Source of the DNA: Chloropicon primus
Taxonomy: Eukaryota; Chlorophyta; Chloropicophyceae; Chloropicales; Chloropicaceae
Length of the DNA: 64,000 nt
Direction: 5' to 3'
NCBI GenBank assembly: GCA_023205875.1
Contig: CP060764.1
Location: forward strand, 1-64,000
Shown here: piece after piece, positions 4,073 through 27,413 of the stretch
Layout: every line of letters starts with the position of its first letter
Numbering within the stretch: position 1 is the first letter of the stretch
Notes under the pieces: generated by a model
Databases searched by the model: none
Told to the model about the DNA's origin: nothing
Seen by the model: only the letters and a program-made list of their open reading frames with translations
Program-made: the position numbers and the translations under genes

Positions 4073-4209
4073 CTGCAGAACAACAAGAAGAAGAACAACA
4101 AGAAGAAGAATCCTTGTCCTTTGGTGACGCAGATGGTGAAGCAGATGGTGCTGTGGTGCTGGGTTTGTTTTTTCCTGGGGGTTCCGTTGAGCCCAGGAGG
4201 GGTGTTGTA

Positions 4210-4488
4210 GTGTTCAGACATCAGATCAAAACAGCACACAGAAAAGTCACGAAAGGACGGTAGGGAAATCACAGTCAATACTGGAAGCACAAAGGCAAGT
4301 TCTCCTTTCCACTGAAGAGGCCGGCCCCTACTTACCTGTTAGTTTTCTGCAAAGGTCGTTTCACCGAGTTTGTAAGTTTCTCGGCAGGGTAATTCAGCCC
4401 TACCACGACCATTCCACCGTACATGAACGAATACTTCCGCCCACGCACGGCAGCCCGTACTAACAAACGTATGTGCAACCCTGAGGAG
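4210..4488 (-). ncRNA. Candidate omega-RNA / 3' guide-RNA region of Fanzor copy 1
   Basis: These 279 bases lie between the Fanzor stop codon and the element end. Compared by eye with the 288 bases of copy 2, they differ only by two small deletions (5 and 4 nt), with no substitutions. The region folds into the same hairpins as copy 2 and carries the same CAG/GTAAGT splice-donor consensus. TnpB and Fanzor guide RNAs are known to come from the element 3' end. Assigning this stretch as the guide RNA is inference. Confidence 0.45.
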
Positions 4489-6081
4489 TTACACACTTTT
4501 TGGTTGACGCAAGTGCTTCAGGAGGACGTTGCGTGCCCCGTTCACATCCCGACCGCACTTGAAGCCACACTTCTGGCACTTGTACACCTCTGCTCCACCC
4601 AGGTTCTTCTTGATGTGTCCGCACCTGCCACAGGTCTTGGAGGTGTACTCCTCCGTCACGATCGCCAGCTCACTGCCGTGCAAGAGCACCTTGGAAGCCA
4701 AGAACGTTCTGAACGCATAGTGCCTCAACGTCAAGAGCGTGCGAGCCGTCTTCTTCCTGATCACTCGGCGTCTCCCGTTGTTGTTCTTCTTCACCATGTC
4801 TTGGGACTTGAACTCCGGGAGGAGGATTGTGTCGAACCTCCTGCATAGATCGTTGGCTACCTTTTTGTGAAGCTCGTTCGTCAGACCTCGAAGTTTCTCC
4901 ATGCAGGCGTATTGCTGTCTCTTCAAGTCGCGGCGGTCGAGGTAAGGGAGCTTCACCTTGGGATCTTCGCGCTCGGAAATGATCTCATCAATCCTCCGGC
5001 AGAGGTGGAACAGCCTCGCGAAGCCTCGCTCGCCCGTGGCATACTCCCCGACGCCTTCTTGCGGCGAGTACGACGTCTGAAAGGTCCTGACTCCCGGATC
5101 CAGGGCGACAACCTTCCGCTTGTTCTCAGGCTTCAGGGGTGGCAGGCGATCCCATGGCGTCGCGATGGGAATGTGCATGTGGAACTGCCCAAGGCGATTT
5201 CTTGTGATCTTCACGGCACCCTCGATCTTGCCCCCGGGGATCTCCTCCGTCAAGTACAGGGGCCCGCCGGCCATCTTCTTCTTGAACACCTCCAGCTTGG
5301 TCCACTTGCGTCGTTTGTTGTGCTTGGTGTCATCCTTGTGCCTCGTGTTTGGCCTTTCGATCGTCTCCACGTTCTTTAACTCTCTTGCATCAATTTCAAT
5401 GGTCCAAGAACTCGGTTGCTGACGTTGACGATACTTGAGAACGAAGCGGTGCCCCTTCTCCTCGCCGCGCTCCTTCATCGCTTCCTGCTTCGCGATGTTC
5501 GAATCCCATGCCTTGATGAGACTTCGCACGGCAGCTTGTCTGATGGCACAGGGGGTATCCTTCAGCCAAGGATGCTTCTGATTTACAAAGGCCCCGCTAA
5601 CGTAGTCCCGGTCCTTGGCCACTTCGGTGCGAAAAGCTCTGCCTCCAATTTGGCTCTCGAGTCTCTTCTCTCTGGCCGCGAAAAGCTCTGCCTCCTGTTT
5701 TGTCCATGGCCGTGGAGAGCATTGGATTTCTTTCAGCTCTTTCTTCAGGCCCTCAAAGACCTCAGGGCCTCGAGGTTTGGCCGTCACAAATCTGTCCAGC
5801 AGGACGGTCCAAACCAGCGGAAAACGCTCCTTCTTGACCGCCTCCAAACACTTGTTGTATGTGAAACGCGCAGCTCCCATCCAGTTGCAAAGGCACTTCG
5901 CCTGCTCAGGGTTCAAGCGCATCCTCAGCTTCCTCGTCCGTATCACCGTTCGCTCCGACAATACCTTGGAGGTCTTCAGTTTCTGCCCCTCTTCCTTTTG
6001 GCGGGCGGCTGCAATGTCTCGACGGATACCACAAGATCTTCTGGAAGGTTCAAGCACGACCTCCATCCCGTCTTCGGACAC
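4489..6081 (-). CDS. Fanzor RNA-guided nuclease (TnpB-like), copy 1
   Basis: This is an uninterrupted 530-codon frame. An N-terminal segment typical of TnpB/Fanzor (RKLRMRLNPEQAKCLCNWMG, then ARFTYNKCLEA) is followed by a RuvC nuclease split around a zinc ribbon. RuvC-I is VVALDPGVRTF (D328), RuvC-II is ILLPEF (E423) and RuvC-III is CGRDVNGARNVLL (D512). The zinc ribbon uses C484, C487, C502 and C505 (TCGRCG, YKCQKCG). All three acidic residues and four cysteines are present, so the enzyme looks catalytically whole. It differs from copy 2 at about 17 positions (roughly 97% identity). Fanzors are known to be RNA-guided DNA endonucleases encoded in eukaryotic transposons. The N-terminal reading frame just upstream may be part of the same protein. 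Confidence 0.93.
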   Translation of the reverse strand: MSEDGMEVVLEPSRRSCGIRRDIAAARQKEEGQKLKTSKVLSERTVIRTRKLRMRLNPEQAKCLCNWMGAARFTYNKCLEAVKKERFPLVWTVLLDRFVTAKPRGPEVFEGLKKELKEIQCSPRPWTKQEAELFAAREKRLESQIGGRAFRTEVAKDRDYVSGAFVNQKHPWLKDTPCAIRQAAVRSLIKAWDSNIAKQEAMKERGEEKGHRFVLKYRQRQQPSSWTIEIDARELKNVETIERPNTRHKDDTKHNKRRKWTKLEVFKKKMAGGPLYLTEEIPGGKIEGAVKITRNRLGQFHMHIPIATPWDRLPPLKPENKRKVVALDPGVRTFQTSYSPQEGVGEYATGERGFARLFHLCRRIDEIISEREDPKVKLPYLDRRDLKRQQYACMEKLRGLTNELHKKVANDLCRRFDTILLPEFKSQDMVKKNNNGRRRVIRKKTARTLLTLRHYAFRTFLASKVLLHGSELAIVTEEYTSKTCGRCGHIKKNLGGAEVYKCQKCGFKCGRDVNGARNVLLKHLRQPKSV

Positions 6082-6649
6082 TTTACCTCTTCAAGTTCTC
6101 TCTTCATCGATGAGAACCAGGTCTTCTTCACGCTGTCGCCCGCCAAGCCACCCGGCTGCTTCCTGCTTTCTTCCCCTCTTGTTCTTCTTCTTCTTACCCT
6201 TCTTCTTGTTCTTCTTCTTGCCCTTCTTGCGAGGCTTCTTGCGAGGCTTGCCTGACGAGCTCGAACTCTCACCGCAGAGGAAGCCGCCTCCGGCGGCTTC
6301 CCTTACCCGCTTCCCCCGCTTCTTGCGAGGCGTGCTCGAACCCTCCTCGAAAGCAGAGGCGGGGTCGTCCAGCAGCTTCTCCTTCCGCCCCCCGCTTCTT
6401 GCGAGGCGTGCTCGAACCCTCACCCGCAGAGGCGGGGTCGTCCGCGATAGGAAGCATGCACTTCTCGTAGAGCCACTTCAACGCCTGATTCCAGAACCGA
6501 CGTAACGGCCGCTCCGTCGTCGGAGACTCCTGCCCCGACTTCGAAGCGCCCTGAGCATGACTCTCGCCAGAGTGCGACCTCCTTGTGGAACTCGTCGAGC
6601 CACTCCCCTGCTTCTCCTTTTTCTTACGGCGCTTCCCTGATCGCGCCAT
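5976..6649 (-). pseudogene. N-terminal Lys/Ser-rich ORF of Fanzor copy 1, frame-broken
   Basis: This is the counterpart of the intact 226-codon frame in copy 2. Here the same protein is spread over three frames: 6649 to 6269, then within 6423-6091, then 6272-5976. That implies at least two frame-shifting indels. It starts MARSGKRRKKKEKQ and carries repeated blocks of DDPASA, GSSTPRKKRG and RKKPRKKGKKKNKK, resembling multiple nuclear-localisation signals. The last 35 or so codons overlap the start of the nuclease frame. The frame relation at that junction is the same as in copy 2. Confidence 0.6.
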
Positions 6650-6816
6650 GACGGTTATTAGGGTTTCACTCGCTGCCCTCCTCGTAACTCCTCGTAACTA
6701 TAGATTTGCCTTGTCCAGCAAGTGAGAACACGAAAAAAACATTTTGTGGGTTGTCCTTTGGGTGTGACCAAACTGGTATACACTGGAATCCCACCAACAG
6801 GGGAAAACCTCCAACA

Positions 6817-7021
6817 AGGGGAACGAACGAACACAAGAACACCAGACGACGACGACGACGACGACGACGAGGAGGAGGACGAGGACGAGGACGAGGAGGA
6901 CAACAAGAACATACAACCGGACTGGAGGATAACACACACACACACACACACACACACCACATAGAGATAGATAGATAGATAGAACAACGAGGAGTTTTGT
7001 GTGTTTGTGTGTTGATGGAAC
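6817..7021. repeat. Low-complexity flank between Fanzor copy 1 and POLD4
   Basis: A (GAC)n/(GAG)n stretch at 6845-6905 is followed by (AC)n at 6932-6958 and (GATA)n at 6964-6981. It lies directly between the element end and the POLD4 start codon, so it is also the only room left for the POLD4 promoter. Confidence 0.8.
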
Positions 7022-7426: not shown

Positions 7427-7743
7427 CTGAACGGATGGACTGGGACACCACGCACCGCACGCGTCACTTGATGGACTTGAGGGAGGCTTGGAGACCTGCG
7501 CAATGCCTCGAGGGCGTCTCGTTGGATTGCTAACAAGCACGAGGTTTTTGGAATAATGTTTTTGTTAAAAAATCACTTATGTCGTTGTTGTCTCGTCAAC
7601 CTAGCGTAACGCCCTTGCTGGGTATCGAGCCAGCAGTAATTTAGTCGTCGTCGGTCGCTCGGTCCTCTCCTTCTACTATTGTACAGTGTCACTTGCTTGG
7701 TGTCCCTCTCCTGTTGTTTGTCATCGATTCGATCGGCCGTCGC
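7427..7743. other. Convergent 3' interval between POLD4 and COX15
   Basis: Only 3' flanks and short frames are visible. I see no repeat and no structured element. Confidence 0.5.
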
Positions 7744-9375
7744 TCACGCCACGGTCCTCCCCAGCACCGCTTGCGCCCCCCGCGAAGCGGCTTGCGCTGC
7801 CTTGAGGGGTCTGGTGCAGTATATGGAGGCCAAGGCGACCGACATGAGGGTCAAGGCGCCCGCTTGGTGGGCGCTGCCCAGGTGAACGGGCACGTAATTC
7901 AGCAAAGTCGTGATCCCGAGGCCCACCTGGCACCAGGCCATCCCGCAGAGAACTTTGAGCAAGGTCGCCGAGTGGTTCGGCAAAGGGCTTCTCCTGTGGA
8001 TCAGGAAGAGCGAGGTGGACGCCAGGAGGGTGGTCACCGCGAGGACGCGGTGGTGGAACTGCACGGCGCACGTGTTCTCGAACGTGTTCGCGAGAATCCT
8101 GGAAACTCGGTCGGCCGGGTCAAGGCCAGCCCAGTCGCCCCAGTCGCCCCCCTCGTGCCCCCAGTAGTCCGTGGGAAAGACCCTCCCGGGGTCTCCCATC
8201 AGAGGGAACGTGTTGTAGGCGTGTCCCGCGTCAAGGCCCGCGACGAAGGCGCCGCTGACGGCCGTGAGGGAGACCAGAACGGCGTACAGACCCAAGTGCC
8301 TCCCGAGCCTCCTTCCTCCCGAGATGACCCCGGAGCCCGCCGCGTGGAGCTCCTGGGCCAGCTGCATGGGGGTCTTCGGCATGAGGACTGAGAGGGTCGT
8401 CCACAGAAGCCCGGAGTAGATGACAAAGGCCGAGGTGAGGTGGGCCGCGAGCCTGTAGGGCGAGACCCTGGGCACGTCGTACTGGTACTCCGTGGGTTCC
8501 TTCAGCCCGCTCTTGACCATCCACCAACCCACCAGACCCTGGCCGCCCCCCATGAGCATCAGGAGCCCAAGCCTCCTGGTGAGCGGGGCCGAGAGCTTCC
8601 GCGTTGCAGCAAAGTACGCGAACGGCAGGCCGAACACGAGTCCGAGCACCCTCCCCCACATCCTGTGCCCGTACTCCATCCAATAGATGAACTTGAACTC
8701 CTCGAGGGACATGCCCAAGTTCACCTTCTTGAACTCCGGACTCTGCTTGTACTTTGCGAATTCCTTGACCCAGTCCTCGTGATTGAGCGGCGGCCTCTCC
8801 CCAGCGAACTTCCACTCCGTCATGCTCAAGCCACTCCGCGTGAGCCTCGTGATCCCGCCGAGGACCACCATGGAGAACACCCAAGCGCTGCAGAGACCGA
8901 GCCAACCCCCAACCCACTTCCTGCTCGTGGAGCTCATCCCGCGCGTCAAGCCGCTCTCGACACTCGCCTCGCTCATTGTCCCGAACGACCGCCGCCAAGG
9001 ATGCCAACCAGGACGAGGATGAGGACGAGGACTCAACCTCAACGCGTTCGCCGGCAACCCCTTCCCCTTCGAGGATGAGGATGAGGACGCCTTGGTCAAG
9101 GAGAAGAATCCTCGCGTCCACTTGGGCGCCGCTCGAGCGCTCGATGCCGCGGACGGTCCCCCGCATTGCCTCAGTCCAAGGGACACACCCCTCCTGCGGT
9201 TGGCGTGTTCGGTCGCCATCCTCCGTGCCAAAGTCGTCGTCCTCGGTGCCGTCTTCGCCATGAAGGGAAGGGAGGGGAGTAAGGTTACCTTGGCCTGCGT
9301 CCCCTCGGCCCTCCCCATCCCCAGGACGCCCCGCCGCAAAACCTGCGACACGAGGGCCGTCACCGCCATCGCCAT
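7744..9375 (-). CDS. COX15: Heme A synthase COX15, mitochondrial
   Basis: COX15 oxidises heme O to heme A for cytochrome c oxidase in the inner mitochondrial membrane. The 543-residue frame has the family hallmarks LGGITRLTRSGLSMTEWKF, then EFKFIYWMEYGHRMWGR with a heme-ligand histidine. Later blocks include AGLDAGHAYNTFPLMG and VQFHHRVLA. About eight hydrophobic segments span residues 150 to 530. The first 130 or so residues are Arg/Ser/Ala-rich and would act as a mitochondrial presequence, longer than usual. Internal Met codons make the exact start uncertain. No intron is needed. Confidence 0.95.
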   Translation of the reverse strand: MAMAVTALVSQVLRRGVLGMGRAEGTQAKVTLLPSLPFMAKTAPRTTTLARRMATEHANRRRGVSLGLRQCGGPSAASSARAAPKWTRGFFSLTKASSSSSSKGKGLPANALRLSPRPHPRPGWHPWRRSFGTMSEASVESGLTRGMSSTSRKWVGGWLGLCSAWVFSMVVLGGITRLTRSGLSMTEWKFAGERPPLNHEDWVKEFAKYKQSPEFKKVNLGMSLEEFKFIYWMEYGHRMWGRVLGLVFGLPFAYFAATRKLSAPLTRRLGLLMLMGGGQGLVGWWMVKSGLKEPTEYQYDVPRVSPYRLAAHLTSAFVIYSGLLWTTLSVLMPKTPMQLAQELHAAGSGVISGGRRLGRHLGLYAVLVSLTAVSGAFVAGLDAGHAYNTFPLMGDPGRVFPTDYWGHEGGDWGDWAGLDPADRVSRILANTFENTCAVQFHHRVLAVTTLLASTSLFLIHRRSPLPNHSATLLKVLCGMAWCQVGLGITTLLNYVPVHLGSAHQAGALTLMSVALASIYCTRPLKAAQAASRGAQAVLGRTVA

Positions 9376-24447: not shown

Positions 24448-24695
24448 CTGGGAACGTAATCTTTGCCCTCCTCCGCACGCAACAACAAGCAACACGACCC
24501 ACGACCACGACGATCCGATCGACGACAGATGTTGGAGGTTTTCCCCTGTTGGTGGGATTCCAGTGTATACCAGTTTGGTCACACCCAAAGGACAACCCAC
24601 AAAATGTTTGCTCGTGTTCTCACTTGCTGGACAAGGCCAGTCTATAGTTACGAGGAGTTACGAGGAGGGAAGCGAGTGAAACCCTAATAACCGTC

Positions 24696-25376
24696 ATGGC
24701 GCGATCAGGGAAGCGCCGTAAGAAAAAGGAGAAGCAGGGGAGTGGCTCGACGAGTTCCACAAGGAGGTCGCACTCTGGCGAGAGTCATGCTCAGGGCGAT
24801 TCGAGGTCGGGGCAGGAGTCTCCGACGACGGAGCCGTTACGTCGGTTCTGGAATCAGGGTTTAGCCTGGCTCTACGCGTTGTGCCTGCTTCCTATCGCGG
24901 ACGACCCCGCCTCTGCGGGTGAGGGTTCGAGCACGCCTCGCAAGAAGCGGGGGGGGAAGCGGAAGGAGAAGCCGCTGGACGACCCCGCCTCTGCTTTCGA
25001 GGAGGGTTCGAGCACGCCTCGCAAGAAGCGGGGGGGGAAGCGGAAGGGGCGTCCGCCGGAGGCGGACGCCTCTGCGGGTGAGAGTTCGAGCTCGTCAGGC
25101 AAGCCTCGCAAGAAGCCTCGCAAGAAGGGCAAGAAGAAGAACAAGAAGAAGGGTAAGAAGAAGAAGAACAAGAGGGGGAAGAAAGCAGGGAAGCAGCCGG
25201 GTGGCTTGGCGGACGACAGCGTGAAGAAGACCTGGTTCTCATCGATCAAGAGAGAACTTGTAGAGGTAAAGTGTCCGAAGACGGGATGGAGGTCGTGCTT
25301 GAACCTTCCAGAAGATTCTGTGGTATCCGTCGAGACATTGCAGTCGCCCGCCAAAAGGAAGAGGGGCAGAAACTGA
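24696..25376 (+). CDS. Lys/Ser-rich N-terminal ORF of Fanzor copy 2
   Basis: This intact 226-codon frame starts MARSGKRRKKKEKQGSGS. Two near-identical blocks (DDPASA followed by GSSTPRKKRGGKRK) and a Lys-rich tract (RKKPRKKGKKKNKKKGKK) look like repeated nuclear-localisation signals. An ordered-looking piece follows (VKKTWFSSIKRELVEV, GWRSCLNLPED). It overlaps the nuclease frame by about 105 bp in a different frame. Splicing could join the two. Frame-compatible options are a 41-nt intron 25271-25311 (acceptor TTGAACCTTCCAG) or a 104-nt intron 25266-25369 (donor GTAAAG). It could instead be a separate protein or an unusually long N-terminal extension of Fanzor. Confidence 0.6.
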   Translation: MARSGKRRKKKEKQGSGSTSSTRRSHSGESHAQGDSRSGQESPTTEPLRRFWNQGLAWLYALCLLPIADDPASAGEGSSTPRKKRGGKRKEKPLDDPASAFEEGSSTPRKKRGGKRKGRPPEADASAGESSSSSGKPRKKPRKKGKKKNKKKGKKKKNKRGKKAGKQPGGLADDSVKKTWFSSIKRELVEVKCPKTGWRSCLNLPEDSVVSVETLQSPAKRKRGRN

Positions 25377-26863
25377 AGACCTCCAAGGTATTGTCGGAGC
25401 GAACGGTGATGCGGACGAGGAAGCTTAGGATGCGCTTGAACCCTGAGCAGGCGAGAACACTTTGCAACTGGATGGGAGCTGCGCGTTTCACATACAACAA
25501 GTGTTTGGAGGCGGTCAAGAAGGAGGGTTTTCCGCTGGTTTGGACCGTCCTGCTGGACAGATTTGTGACGGCCAAACCGCGACGCCCTGAGGTCTTTGAG
25601 GGCCTGGAGAAAGAGCTGAAAGAAATCCAATGCTCTCCACGGCCATGGACAAAACAGGAGGCAGAGCTTTTCGCGGCCAGAGAGAACAGACTCGAGAGCC
25701 TCATTGGAGGCAGAGCTTTTCGCACCGAAGTGGCCAAGGACCGGGACTACGTTAGCGGGGCCTTTGTAAATCAGAAGCATCCTTGGCTGAAGGATACCCC
25801 CTGTGCCATCAGACAAGCTGCCGTGCGAAGTCTCATCAAGGCATGGGATTCGAACATCGCGAAGCAGGAAGCGATGAAGGAGCGCGGCGAGGAGAAGGGG
25901 CACCGCTTCGTTCTCAAGTATCGTCAACGTCAGCAACCGAGTTCTTGGACCATTGAAATTGATGCAAGAGAGTTAAAGAACGTGGAGACGATCGAAAGGC
26001 CAAACACGAGACACAAGGATGACACCAAGCACAAGAAACGACGCAAGTGGACCAAGCTGGAGGTGTTCAAGGAGAAGATGGCCGGCGGGCCCCTGTACTT
26101 GACGGAGGAGATCCCCGGGGGCAAGATCGAGGGTGCCGTGAAGATCACAAGAAATCGCCTTGGGCAGTTCCACATGCACATTCCCATCGCGACGCCATGG
26201 GATCGCCTGCCACCCCTGAAGCCTGAGAACAAGCGGAAGGTTGTCGCCCTGGATCCGGGAGTCAGGACCTTTCAGACGTCGTACTCGCCGCAAGAAGGCG
26301 TCGGGGAGTATGCCAAGGGCGAGCGAGGCTTCGCGAGGCTGTTCAACCTCTGCTGGAGGATTGATGAGATCATTTCCGAGCGCAAAGACCCAAAGGTGAA
26401 GCTCCCTTACCTCGACCGCCGCGACTTGAAGAGACAGCAATACGCCTGCATGGAGAAACTTCGAGGTCTGACGAACGAGCTTCACAAAAAGGTAGCCAAC
26501 GATCTATGCAGGAGGTTCGACACAATCCTCCTCCCGGAGTTCAAGTCCCAAGACATGGTGAAGAAGAACAACAACGGGAGACGCCGAGTGATCAGGAAGA
26601 AGACGGCTCGCACGCTCTTGACGTTGAGGCACTATGCGTTCAGAACGTTCTTGGCTTCCAAGGTGCTCTTGCACGGCAGTGAGCTGGCGATCGTGACGGA
26701 GGAGTACACCTCCAAGACCTGTGGCAAGTGCGGACACATCAAGGACAACCTGGGTGGAGCAGAGGTGTACAAGTGCCAGAAGTGTGGCTTCAAGTGCGGT
26801 CGGGATGTGAACGGGGCACGCAACGTCCTCCTGAAGCACTTGCGTCAACCAAAAAGTGTGTAA
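25271..26863 (+). CDS. Fanzor RNA-guided nuclease (TnpB-like), copy 2
   Basis: This 530-codon frame has the same architecture as copy 1: RuvC-I VVALDPGVRTF (D328), RuvC-II ILLPEF (E423), zinc ribbon TCGKCG and YKCQKCG (C484, C487, C502, C505) and RuvC-III CGRDVNGARNVLL (D512). All catalytic and zinc residues are present. About 17 residues differ from copy 1, scattered and mostly conservative (for example R486K in the zinc ribbon). The start is uncertain, since the true protein may begin in the upstream frame or at an internal Met. Fanzors cut DNA guided by RNA from their own element. Confidence 0.94.
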   Translation: MSEDGMEVVLEPSRRFCGIRRDIAVARQKEEGQKLKTSKVLSERTVMRTRKLRMRLNPEQARTLCNWMGAARFTYNKCLEAVKKEGFPLVWTVLLDRFVTAKPRRPEVFEGLEKELKEIQCSPRPWTKQEAELFAARENRLESLIGGRAFRTEVAKDRDYVSGAFVNQKHPWLKDTPCAIRQAAVRSLIKAWDSNIAKQEAMKERGEEKGHRFVLKYRQRQQPSSWTIEIDARELKNVETIERPNTRHKDDTKHKKRRKWTKLEVFKEKMAGGPLYLTEEIPGGKIEGAVKITRNRLGQFHMHIPIATPWDRLPPLKPENKRKVVALDPGVRTFQTSYSPQEGVGEYAKGERGFARLFNLCWRIDEIISERKDPKVKLPYLDRRDLKRQQYACMEKLRGLTNELHKKVANDLCRRFDTILLPEFKSQDMVKKNNNGRRRVIRKKTARTLLTLRHYAFRTFLASKVLLHGSELAIVTEEYTSKTCGKCGHIKDNLGGAEVYKCQKCGFKCGRDVNGARNVLLKHLRQPKSV

Positions 26864-27151
26864 CTCCTCAGGGTTGCACATACGTTTGTTAGTACGGGCT
26901 GCCGTGCGCTAAGTGGGCGGAAGTATTCGTTCATGTACGGTGGAATGGTCGTGGTAGGGCTGAATTACCCTGCCGAGAAACTTACAAACTCGGTGAAACG
27001 ACCTTTGCAGAAAACTAACAGGTAAGTAGGGGCCGGCCTCCTCTTTCAGTGGAAAGGAGAACTTGCCTTTGTGCTTCCAGTATTGACTGTGATTTCCCTA
27101 CCGTCCTTTCGTGACTTTTCTGTGTGCTGTTTTGATCTGATGTCTGAACAC
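26864..27151 (+). ncRNA. Candidate omega-RNA / 3' guide-RNA region of Fanzor copy 2
   Basis: This 288-base noncoding stretch runs from the Fanzor stop to the element end. A 7-bp hairpin pairs 26953-26959 with 26968-26974 (GGTAGGG with CCCTGCC, one G-U pair, 8-nt loop). A second, partly competing 5-bp hairpin pairs 26973-26977 with 26989-26993 (CCGAG with CTCGG). At 27019-27027 it carries a perfect CAG/GTAAGT donor, followed by an acceptor-like TTTGTGCTTCCAG ending at 27080, which would define a 59-nt intron. The near-absence of changes from copy 1 supports an RNA-level function. Identity as the guide RNA is inferred from other Fanzor/TnpB systems. Confidence 0.5.
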
Positions 27152-27413
27152 CATAACAAAAGAATAAGATATTGATATACTTATTGGCTTTGATGCATGG
27201 TTTGGTTTGATCGTCTCTTCCACTTTCCCAGGAGGAGAGGAACTGCAACTTGGATGGAGGGGAACCTTGGCTTTGATGCATTGTGTTGTGGGTAGGTAGG
27301 GAGGGGGAGAGTCGTGTTGGCGGGTGAGGTGTTGGAGGGGATCCACGGCTGGGGTTCTGTGCGGGATCAATCCGGTGGATGCGAACAAGAATCAAAGGTG
27401 TTGATAAGAAAGA

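What the first reader, a model, noticed from the sequence alone, without database searches (positions are those of the whole stretch)
4210..6816. Two near-identical Fanzor elements in inverted orientation within 21 kb, both with complete RuvC and zinc-ribbon residues
Copies at 4210-6816 and 24530-27151 share sharp ends (TGTTGGAGG... to ...GTCTGAACAC). Their 530-codon nucleases are about 97% identical by hand count, with D328, E423, D512 and all four zinc cysteines kept. Fanzors are known RNA-guided nucleases of eukaryotic mobile elements. No transposase, long terminal inverted repeat or target-site duplication is visible, so the mode of spread is unknown. Two recent copies near one chromosome end suggest present or recent activity.
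Basis: partly seen in the sequence, partly recalled or inferred. Interest (0 to 1): 0.85.

Follow-up and report, generated by a model that had tools for sequence, protein, structure and literature searches.

The report
Algal Fanzor transposon with break-scarred guide site
The two copies belong to an already described family of about thirty jumping DNA elements in a tiny marine green alga that carry an RNA-guided DNA-cutting enzyme; what looks new is that almost every copy carries its own repair-like scar next to the sequence that could serve as the enzyme's guide.

Summary
The Fanzor call is right, but the element is already in print and the reading needs correcting. The genome is Chloropicon primus RCC138 (assembly figures match). 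Yoon 2023 names C. primus Fanzor2s in cut-and-paste transposons with TIRs and TSDs; Lemieux 2019 counts 25 such proteins in strain CCMP1205. Here 30 copies lie on 14 of 20 chromosomes. Both window copies are frameshifted in the N-terminal third; 20 of 30 copies keep a full frame. No mobilising transposase was found.

New observations: (1) nine older Fanzor 3' fragments, 7 ending CTAACGG, resemble IS607-type right ends; the same scaffold end lies inside the living element. (2) Just after it, a 15-mer precedes a junction that differs in 20 of 21 complete copies (median elsewhere 3), at about Fanzor cutting distance. (3) Synonymous diversity in the adjacent half of the core gene is eleven-fold lower. 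Recurrent breakage there, possibly self-cutting, is inferred and untested.

The parts
4203..6816 (-). Fanzor2* element, copy a, TGTTGGAGG...GAACACTACAACA
4198..4202 (.). TSD of copy a at the gene-3' side (AGGGG on + strand)
6817..6821 (.). TSD of copy a at the gene-5' side (AGGGG on + strand)
6648..6650 (-). ATG of the MARSGKRRKKKEK N-terminal extension; frame broken downstream in this copy
4489..6066 (-). 525-aa open core ORF (HTH, RuvC, zinc ribbon): D323, E472, D507; C479, C482, C497, C500
4335..4488 (-). predicted reRNA scaffold part downstream of the stop, ending ACTAACAGG; ACTAAC can pair with GTTAGT upstream
   Evidence: folding done on copies L009 and L010; region near-identical
4321..4335 (-). 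near-constant 15-mer GTAAGTAGGGGCCGG after the scaffold end (candidate captive guide; also a splice-donor-like motif)
4312..4320 (-). hypervariable junction, copy a (CCTCTTCAG)
4203..4311 (-). transposon backbone 3' tail, shared with short non-autonomous elements
24530..27158 (+). Fanzor2* element, copy b
24525..24529 (.). imperfect TSD of copy b (ACAGA; right side AAAGA)
27159..27163 (.). imperfect TSD of copy b (AAAGA)
24696..25376 (+). N-terminal ORF of copy b (226 aa) running just past the frameshift at codon 224
25286..26863 (+). 525-aa open core ORF of copy b
26864..27022 (+). predicted reRNA scaffold part downstream of the stop, copy b
27022..27036 (+). 15-mer GTAAGTAGGGGCCGG, copy b
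27037..27049 (+). hypervariable junction, copy b (CCTCCTCTTTCAG)

Best explanation
A non-autonomous DNA transposon family (Fanzor2*) of Chloropicon primus. SHOWN from sequence: ~2.6-kb elements with TGTT...AACA ends and 5-bp TSDs; a ~723-aa Fanzor2-type protein with a Lys-rich N-terminal extension; a structured, little-varying region from the end of the gene to ACTAACAGG; short (~0.35-0.64 kb) relatives that share the ends but lack the gene. INFERRED: a transposase supplied in trans, not identified here and perhaps lost, cuts target DNA with a 5-bp stagger and moves both forms. The Fanzor protein binds the reRNA and cuts matching DNA. The Fanzor unit was captured from an IS607-type element, so its scaffold end (and possibly its guide) now lies inside the transposon. 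The site just downstream is repeatedly broken and repaired, which leaves copy-specific scars and, by gene conversion, a uniform 3' half.
For: 30 copies in 17.58 Mb. Perfect 5-bp TSD in 17 of 24 elements with both ends (16 of 22 Fanzor copies, 1 of 2 short elements) against 6 of 552 mismatched flank pairs. No long shared flanks except L031/L034 and a 68% match L025/L030. Fanzor2 signature DPG-E(alt)-C4-D matches the pattern quoted from Yoon 2023. pN/pS 0.55 over the core of the 20 intact copies, 0.45 in its first half. reRNA-region diversity 0.004 against 0.066 in the 5'UTR, 21 copies. Fold z -2.7, -3.4 and -1.7 for three stretches containing it; the backbone tail shows none (z -0.20 to +0.75 in 4 of 4). 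Eight of nine old fragments end CTA[AG]CGG, one CTAACAG. Short elements L046-L049 share one or both ends. Junction.
Against: No transposase found: no match to the integrase core (PF00665) or MULE (PF10551), both with working controls; the hAT search is inconclusive because its control was silent; other DDE families were not searched. TIRs beyond TGTT/AACA are not above chance (one copy). Of 22 Fanzor copies with both ends, two (copy b, L031) match at only 4 of 5 TSD bases and four (L014, L018, L024, L032) have no TSD in register (L014 has one shifted by a base). Covariation in the reRNA helices does not exceed shuffles. The second half of the core has pN/pS 1.59 on very few changes and the N-terminal extension 0.87, so purifying selection shows only in the first half of the core. 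Yoon 2023 (text read, figures not) says the TSD appears to be part of the scaffold in Fanzor2*s, which disagrees with an internal scaffold end.
Confidence: 0.8

Rival explanations
1. Self-cutting. The reRNA uses the captive internal guide (TAAGT[A/T]G[G/T]GGCCGG plus ~6 nt). The Fanzor complex cuts the element family at this site; end joining leaves copy-specific scars and gene conversion homogenises the neighbouring 3' half of the gene.
For: Left edge of the variable zone is nearly fixed: 15 constant nt plus 4-6 filler nt in 24 of 30 copies, then a right side cut back to 18 different lengths, in 10 phases of a 12-nt repeat among the 24 copies with at least 14 nt of it. Published Fanzor cuts lie at 9-21 nt, mostly 14-21 (Saito 2023). 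The exact 15-mer occurs at 28 places, all inside copies. Synonymous diversity is 0.0041 in the adjacent half of the core against 0.0467 in the far half.
Against: No expression or cleavage data; TAM unknown; a scaffold end normally does not act as TAM. None of 30 copies shows a leftward deletion, so one must assume end protection or selection. Ten of 30 copies lack a full frame as assembled. The diversity drop is a step near nt 1560 rather than a smooth gradient.
Confidence: 0.27
2. The junction is variable for reasons unrelated to Fanzor: slippage in a pyrimidine-rich 12-nt repeat tract inside a relaxed, intron-like stretch (GTAAGT...TTTCAG), or abortive gap repair after excision.
For: The right side is a (TTTCTCTCCGTG)n tract; most fillers are pyrimidine-rich; donor and acceptor splice motifs frame it in most copies. 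Another repeat in the gene's N-terminal part also varies in length.
Against: Slippage should keep the repeat phase, but 10 phases are seen in 24 copies. Up to 17 lengths in 21 copies far exceed the other windows printed (at most 6 lengths among the most variable windows outside the junction). The fixed left edge is unexplained.
Confidence: 0.48
3. The reRNA scaffold extends through the transposon 3' end and TSD, so that the guide is the genomic flank of each copy (model stated for Fanzor2*s by Yoon 2023). The ACTAACAGG boundary would then be a relic.
For: Published statement for Fanzor1 and Fanzor2*. S. punctatus 'ghost' elements carry the RNA next to the right end, and short elements here also keep the tail.
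Against: The tail shows no structure above chance in 4 of 4 sequences and is more diverse (0.0235) than the scaffold region (0.004); 7 of 30 copies lack the tail end.
Confidence: 0.3
4. LTR-type element: TGTT...AACA with a 5-bp TSD is a solo LTR or an integrase-mobilised element.
For: TG...CA ends and TSD length fit LTR retrotransposons (recalled).
Against: No integrase-core match in the genome, control working; no terminal direct repeat above chance in the one copy tested; no longer element shares the ends at the sensitivity used.
Confidence: 0.05
5. Segmental duplication of a chromosome end.
For: Two copies lie within 28 kb of a contig end.
Against: Unrelated flanks, a perfect TSD on copy a and a near-perfect one on copy b, 30 dispersed copies.
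Confidence: 0.01

Closest known systems
Fanzor2* of Chloropicon primus (Yoon 2023 NAR, PMC10711439)
   Same: Same species; Fanzor2 protein; cut-and-paste transposon with degenerate TIRs and TSDs; DPG plus alternative Glu.
   Different: In section 24 and the passages read, nothing on copy-specific junctions, an internal scaffold end, older fragments with a GG end, short non-autonomous relatives or frame status. Figures and supplements not seen.
25 'IS605 transposase-like' proteins of C. primus CCMP1205 (Lemieux 2019, PMC6731263)
   Same: Evidently the same gene family in the other sequenced strain (98% identical protein cluster named putative IS605 transposase, C. primus).
   Different: Annotated as transposases; element structure not described in the passages seen.
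SpuFz1 elements and 'ghost' loci of Spizellomyces punctatus (Saito 2023, PMC10432273, passages)
   Same: Multi-copy Fanzor elements, no transposase within the ends, and short gene-less relatives sharing the ends.
   Different: Fanzor1; 30-nt IRs; RNA at the right end with the guide in the flank. The short elements here lack the ACTAAC scaffold.
IS607-type Fanzor2 / TnpB
   Same: Scaffold end at a GG dinucleotide resembles the old fragments' ends.
   Different: The live element has a 5-bp TSD and no recombinase inside; left ends of the old fragments are lost.
Mimivirus L79 TnpB-like protein (PDB 9b0l; virus name recalled)
   Same: Best solved relative over RuvC-zinc ribbon (E 4e-20 single sequence, 5e-36 profile).
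   Different: N-terminal half aligns only weakly by sequence.

Membership tests
Fanzor2 (TnpB superfamily) | RuvC-I DPG motif | tested here: met
   D323-P324-G325 invariant in 11 rows
Fanzor2 (TnpB superfamily) | alternative RuvC-II Glu just before the first zinc Cys; C4 zinc ribbon; RuvC-III Asp | tested here: met
   E472-x6-C479-x2-C482-x14-C497-x2-C500-x6-D507 fits the pattern quoted
Fanzor2 (TnpB superfamily) | TnpB/Cas12f-type domain profiles | tested here: met
   PF07282, PF12323 over cut-off; NF040570 103.8 of 100 bits. OrfB_IS605 PF01385 below cut-off (14 of 30.5)
Fanzor2 (TnpB superfamily) | reRNA at the gene's 3' end with terminal pairing near the guide | tested here: inconclusive
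   Fold z -1.7 to -3.4; GTTAGT/ACTAAC paired in every cell with letters, but almost invariant, so no covariation
Fanzor2 (TnpB superfamily) | phylogenetic placement among Fanzor2s | not tested
   taken from Yoon 2023; no tree built here
Fanzor2 (TnpB superfamily) | RNA-guided DNA cutting | not testable with these tools
   bench assay needed
IS607 element | serine recombinase within the element | tested here: not met
   The 4 resolvase hits in the genome all lie outside the 30 copies; the two fetched lie in a ~3.2-kb repeat
IS607 element | no TSD, GG crossover | tested here: not met
   5-bp TSDs; a GG-type end is seen only in old fragments and internally
Fanzor2* cut-and-paste transposon | TSD on independent insertions | tested here: met
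   16 of 22 Fanzor copies with both ends
Fanzor2* cut-and-paste transposon | terminal inverted repeats | tested here: inconclusive
   TGTT/AACA only; 60-nt ends of L010 not alignable above chance
LTR retrotransposon / solo LTR | integrase in genome; terminal direct repeats | tested here: not met

The most novel reading that the evidence does not exclude
Capture of an IS607-type Fanzor2 by a cut-and-paste transposon trapped its guide inside the element. The enzyme therefore targets its own family, and nearly every copy records its cuts as a unique scar about 19-21 nt from the scaffold end: a natural self-targeting guide RNA whose cuts also drive gene conversion among copies.
Probability: 0.25. 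Interest if true: 0.87.

Novelty: new variant of a known kind. Interest (0 to 1): 0.55.

Why it matters
What Fanzors do for the transposons that carry them is treated as open in the papers read. Here one genome holds about 30 copies, many with TSDs, short relatives without the gene, and older GG-ended Fanzor fragments: possibly the two sides of a capture from IS607-type to DNA-transposon carriage. The copy-specific junction gives a direct test. If Fanzor cuts its own family at a captive guide, its role may be to spread or homogenise element alleles by break repair rather than to home to a genomic site, and the scars would be a natural record of nuclease activity. The element family itself is already known; only these features are new.

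Tried and rejected
Segmental duplication (rejected for the window copies). LTR or integrase element (rejected). IS607 as present carrier (rejected: TSDs). Serine recombinase as mobiliser: 4 resolvase hits exist; the two fetched lie in a separate repeat. Viral contigs: three scans, none confirmed. Rfam, 801 bases of L009: no match. Genic or intergenic preference: uninformative, 10 of 17 insertion points inside an ORF of 150+ aa against 54% ORF coverage. Target motif: weak A at the first TSD base (11 of 17), not above the 95% null. hAT search inconclusive, silent control. Diversity figures leave out 9 of 30 copies that lack an end; one search gives them for all 30. A tenth short locus (L044, ~150 bp of the 3' region) was fetched but fell out of the fragment analysis because the anchor was not found.
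Full report
Source. The window is contig C11:1-64000 of a genome of 17,584,162 bases in 20 contigs. Total size, chromosome number, longest (1,855,637) and shortest (417,210) chromosome equal the printed values for Chloropicon primus RCC138 (PMC12301720, passages read; contig lengths).

Census. BLAST of copy a against the genome gives 30 copies carrying the Fanzor gene or most of it, on 14 of 20 contigs, plus shorter fragments (the tool scored 40 of 52 candidates and calls its counts lower bounds). I fetched all 28 others with about 2 kb of flank. Comparing 1.9 kb on either side, flanks are unrelated except L031/L034, which share 858 bp at 99.8% and are taken as a segmental duplicate, a 68% match between L025 and L030, and a few matches of 65-190 bp.

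Ends and TSD. As cut, 24 of 30 copies start TGTT and 20 of 30 end AACA; the others are truncated or altered at that end. Twenty-four elements have both ends recognised (22 Fanzor copies, 2 short ones); 17 have a perfect 5-bp TSD (16 and 1), against 6 of 552 mismatched 5'/3' flank pairs. Copy b and L031 match at 4 of 5 (L031's 5' end lies in a rearranged neighbour, so its value is doubtful); L014, L018, L024, L032 and the short L048 do not match in register. TIRs beyond TGTT/AACA are not above chance (copy L010).

Short relatives. The 5' end was found at 31 places and the 3' end at 35. Beyond the Fanzor copies these reveal short elements: L046 (C1, ~570 bp, TSD AGTGG), L047 (~640 bp, last bases lost), L048 (~350 bp, no TSD) and one beside L031 (L049), with an interior unrelated to Fanzor, present at 4 loci. 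A lone 3' end lies at C1:71 kb (L050). No longer element with these ends was found at the sensitivity used.

Protein. The intact frame is 695-746 aa (16 of 20 are 722-724), starting MARSGKRRKKKEK about 165 nt from the 5' end, in 20 of 30 copies. The other 10, both window copies included, are shifted. Several indels lie in G runs, and the assembly came from nanopore reads, polished and then checked against short-read contigs (passages), so some may be errors. Relatives from public metagenome sources at 51-59% identity also have parts of the N-terminal extension (P0007, P0009, P0010), so the 525-aa ORFs in the window probably lack a real domain. The 11-row alignment holds P0001, P0002, L009 and 8 of the 11 hits (P0004, P0005 and P0013 left out); five rows are C. 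primus. In it D323, E472, D507 and C479, C482, C497, C500 are invariant.

Already known. Yoon 2023 (PMC10711439; section 24 and passages read) reports Fanzor2s of C. primus in cut-and-paste transposons with TSDs and degenerate TIRs. Lemieux 2019 (PMC6731263, passages) lists 25 IS605-transposase-like proteins in strain CCMP1205. So the finding as given is not new. Bao and Jurka 2013 (PMC3627910; abstract, section 12 and passages) describe other Fanzor elements without a transposase inside.

reRNA and capture. Nine shorter loci hold only the last ~140-290 bp of the gene plus ~100 bp: seven at 91-94% identity and two at 83-84%. Their left edges vary; their right ends are CTAACGG (7), CTAGCGG (1) and CTAACAG (1), followed by unrelated flank (two of the nine are an identical duplicated pair on C16, counted here as two). 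In the intact elements the same place reads ACTAACAGG and is followed by GTAAGT..., roughly 120-185 nt before the transposon end. IS607 elements cross over at GG, and the right-flanking nucleotide belongs to the scaffold (Yoon 2023). I infer that the fragments are right ends of IS607-type Fanzor2s and that a relative was captured. In helix 1 one pair changes on both sides and two on one side; GTTAGT pairs with ACTAAC in every sequence with letters there. Overall 93.9% of cells pair, against 27-42% for slid controls, but four helix-1 pairs fail in some sequences and covariation does not exceed shuffles. Folding is better than shuffles for stretches with the scaffold (z -2.7, -3.4, -1.7 for two Fanzor copies; -1.9 and -2.9 for two fragments) and not for the backbone tail (z +0.06, -0.20, +0.59, +0.75).

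Hypervariable junction. After ACTAACAG all 30 copies have GTAAGT[A/T]G[G/T]GGCCGG (two with an extra T), then 0-7 nt of filler in 28 copies and 17 or 27 nt in the other two (5-6 nt in 21 of 30), then a pyrimidine tract cut back to 18 different lengths, down to none in L019. Twenty-nine of 30 stretches are distinct (L013 and L035 are the same). In 21 copies with both ends a 36-nt window here has 20 haplotypes and up to 17 lengths; the median window has 3 haplotypes and the best window not overlapping the junction 11. The exact 15-mer occurs at 28 places, all inside copies. Fanzor cuts reported by Saito 2023 (passages) lie after nt 16-17/20-21 (SpuFz1, non-target/target strand), 14-17/14-16 (GtFz1), 19/19 (NlovFz2) and 17-18/9-14 (MmeFz2); the scar edge here, 19-21 nt counted from the G of GTAAGT in 24 of 30 copies, is in that range. 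The two halves of the core differ in synonymous diversity (0.0467 far, 0.0041 near the junction) although the near half is not lower in its N:S ratio (1.59, few changes); that points to homogenisation rather than protein constraint. I read this as recurrent breakage with conversion. Whether Fanzor is the breaker is unproven; repeat slippage, gap repair or a short intron under no constraint remain possible, and the region does look like an intron.

Mobiliser. Integrase core (PF00665) and MULE (PF10551) gave no match with working controls; the hAT dimer search had a silent control; other transposase families were not searched. Resolvase domains occur at 4 places; the two fetched lie in a separate ~3.2-kb repeat encoding a 949-aa frame. 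The mobiliser remains unknown.

Literature on the novel part. Searches for Chloropicon+Fanzor (3 papers, 2 listed; the second, on Auxenochlorella, not opened), TnpB+Fanzor+self-targeting (listing only) and solo/non-autonomous reRNA terms (listing only) showed no such description in titles or abstract starts; subscription papers, figures and supplements were not seen.

Noticed in passing
L051, L052; G000 C2:316320, C3:1404945, C9:638220, C16:68745: A ~3.2-kb repeat (98% identical between the two fetched copies) encoding a 949-aa frame with two resolvase-type stretches: a possible serine-recombinase element in a green alga. A further truncated match lies in L039, and its end is ~250 bp from an old Fanzor 3' fragment.
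   Followed up: partly
G000 C14:513915-514514: A diverged Fanzor relic (57% identity over residues 102-306, two stops): a second, older lineage.
   Followed up: no
L037:3096-4864 and 7583-9351 (C16:60-66 kb): A 1769-bp unit, 100% identical, present twice 4.5 kb apart, each with a Fanzor 3' fragment; parts are also inverted nearby.
   Followed up: no
L041 and L045: Two Fanzor 3' fragments share roughly 80 bp of upstream sequence but belong to different 3' subfamilies, which suggests chimeric small elements.
   Followed up: partly
L039:2575-2890: By eye the Fanzor fragment seems to be read in another frame as the end of a longer open frame, a possible exonised transposon piece; no translation was run.
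   Followed up: no
L011: A copy lacking the last ~24 bp of the 3' end is nevertheless flanked by an 8-bp direct repeat (CCACCAGA, seen), perhaps a truncated insertion.
   Followed up: no
element nt ~1560-2460 in all copies: A step drop in diversity between copies (60-nt windows mostly 0.001-0.02 against mostly 0.01-0.06 further 5') ending at the hypervariable junction.
   Followed up: partly
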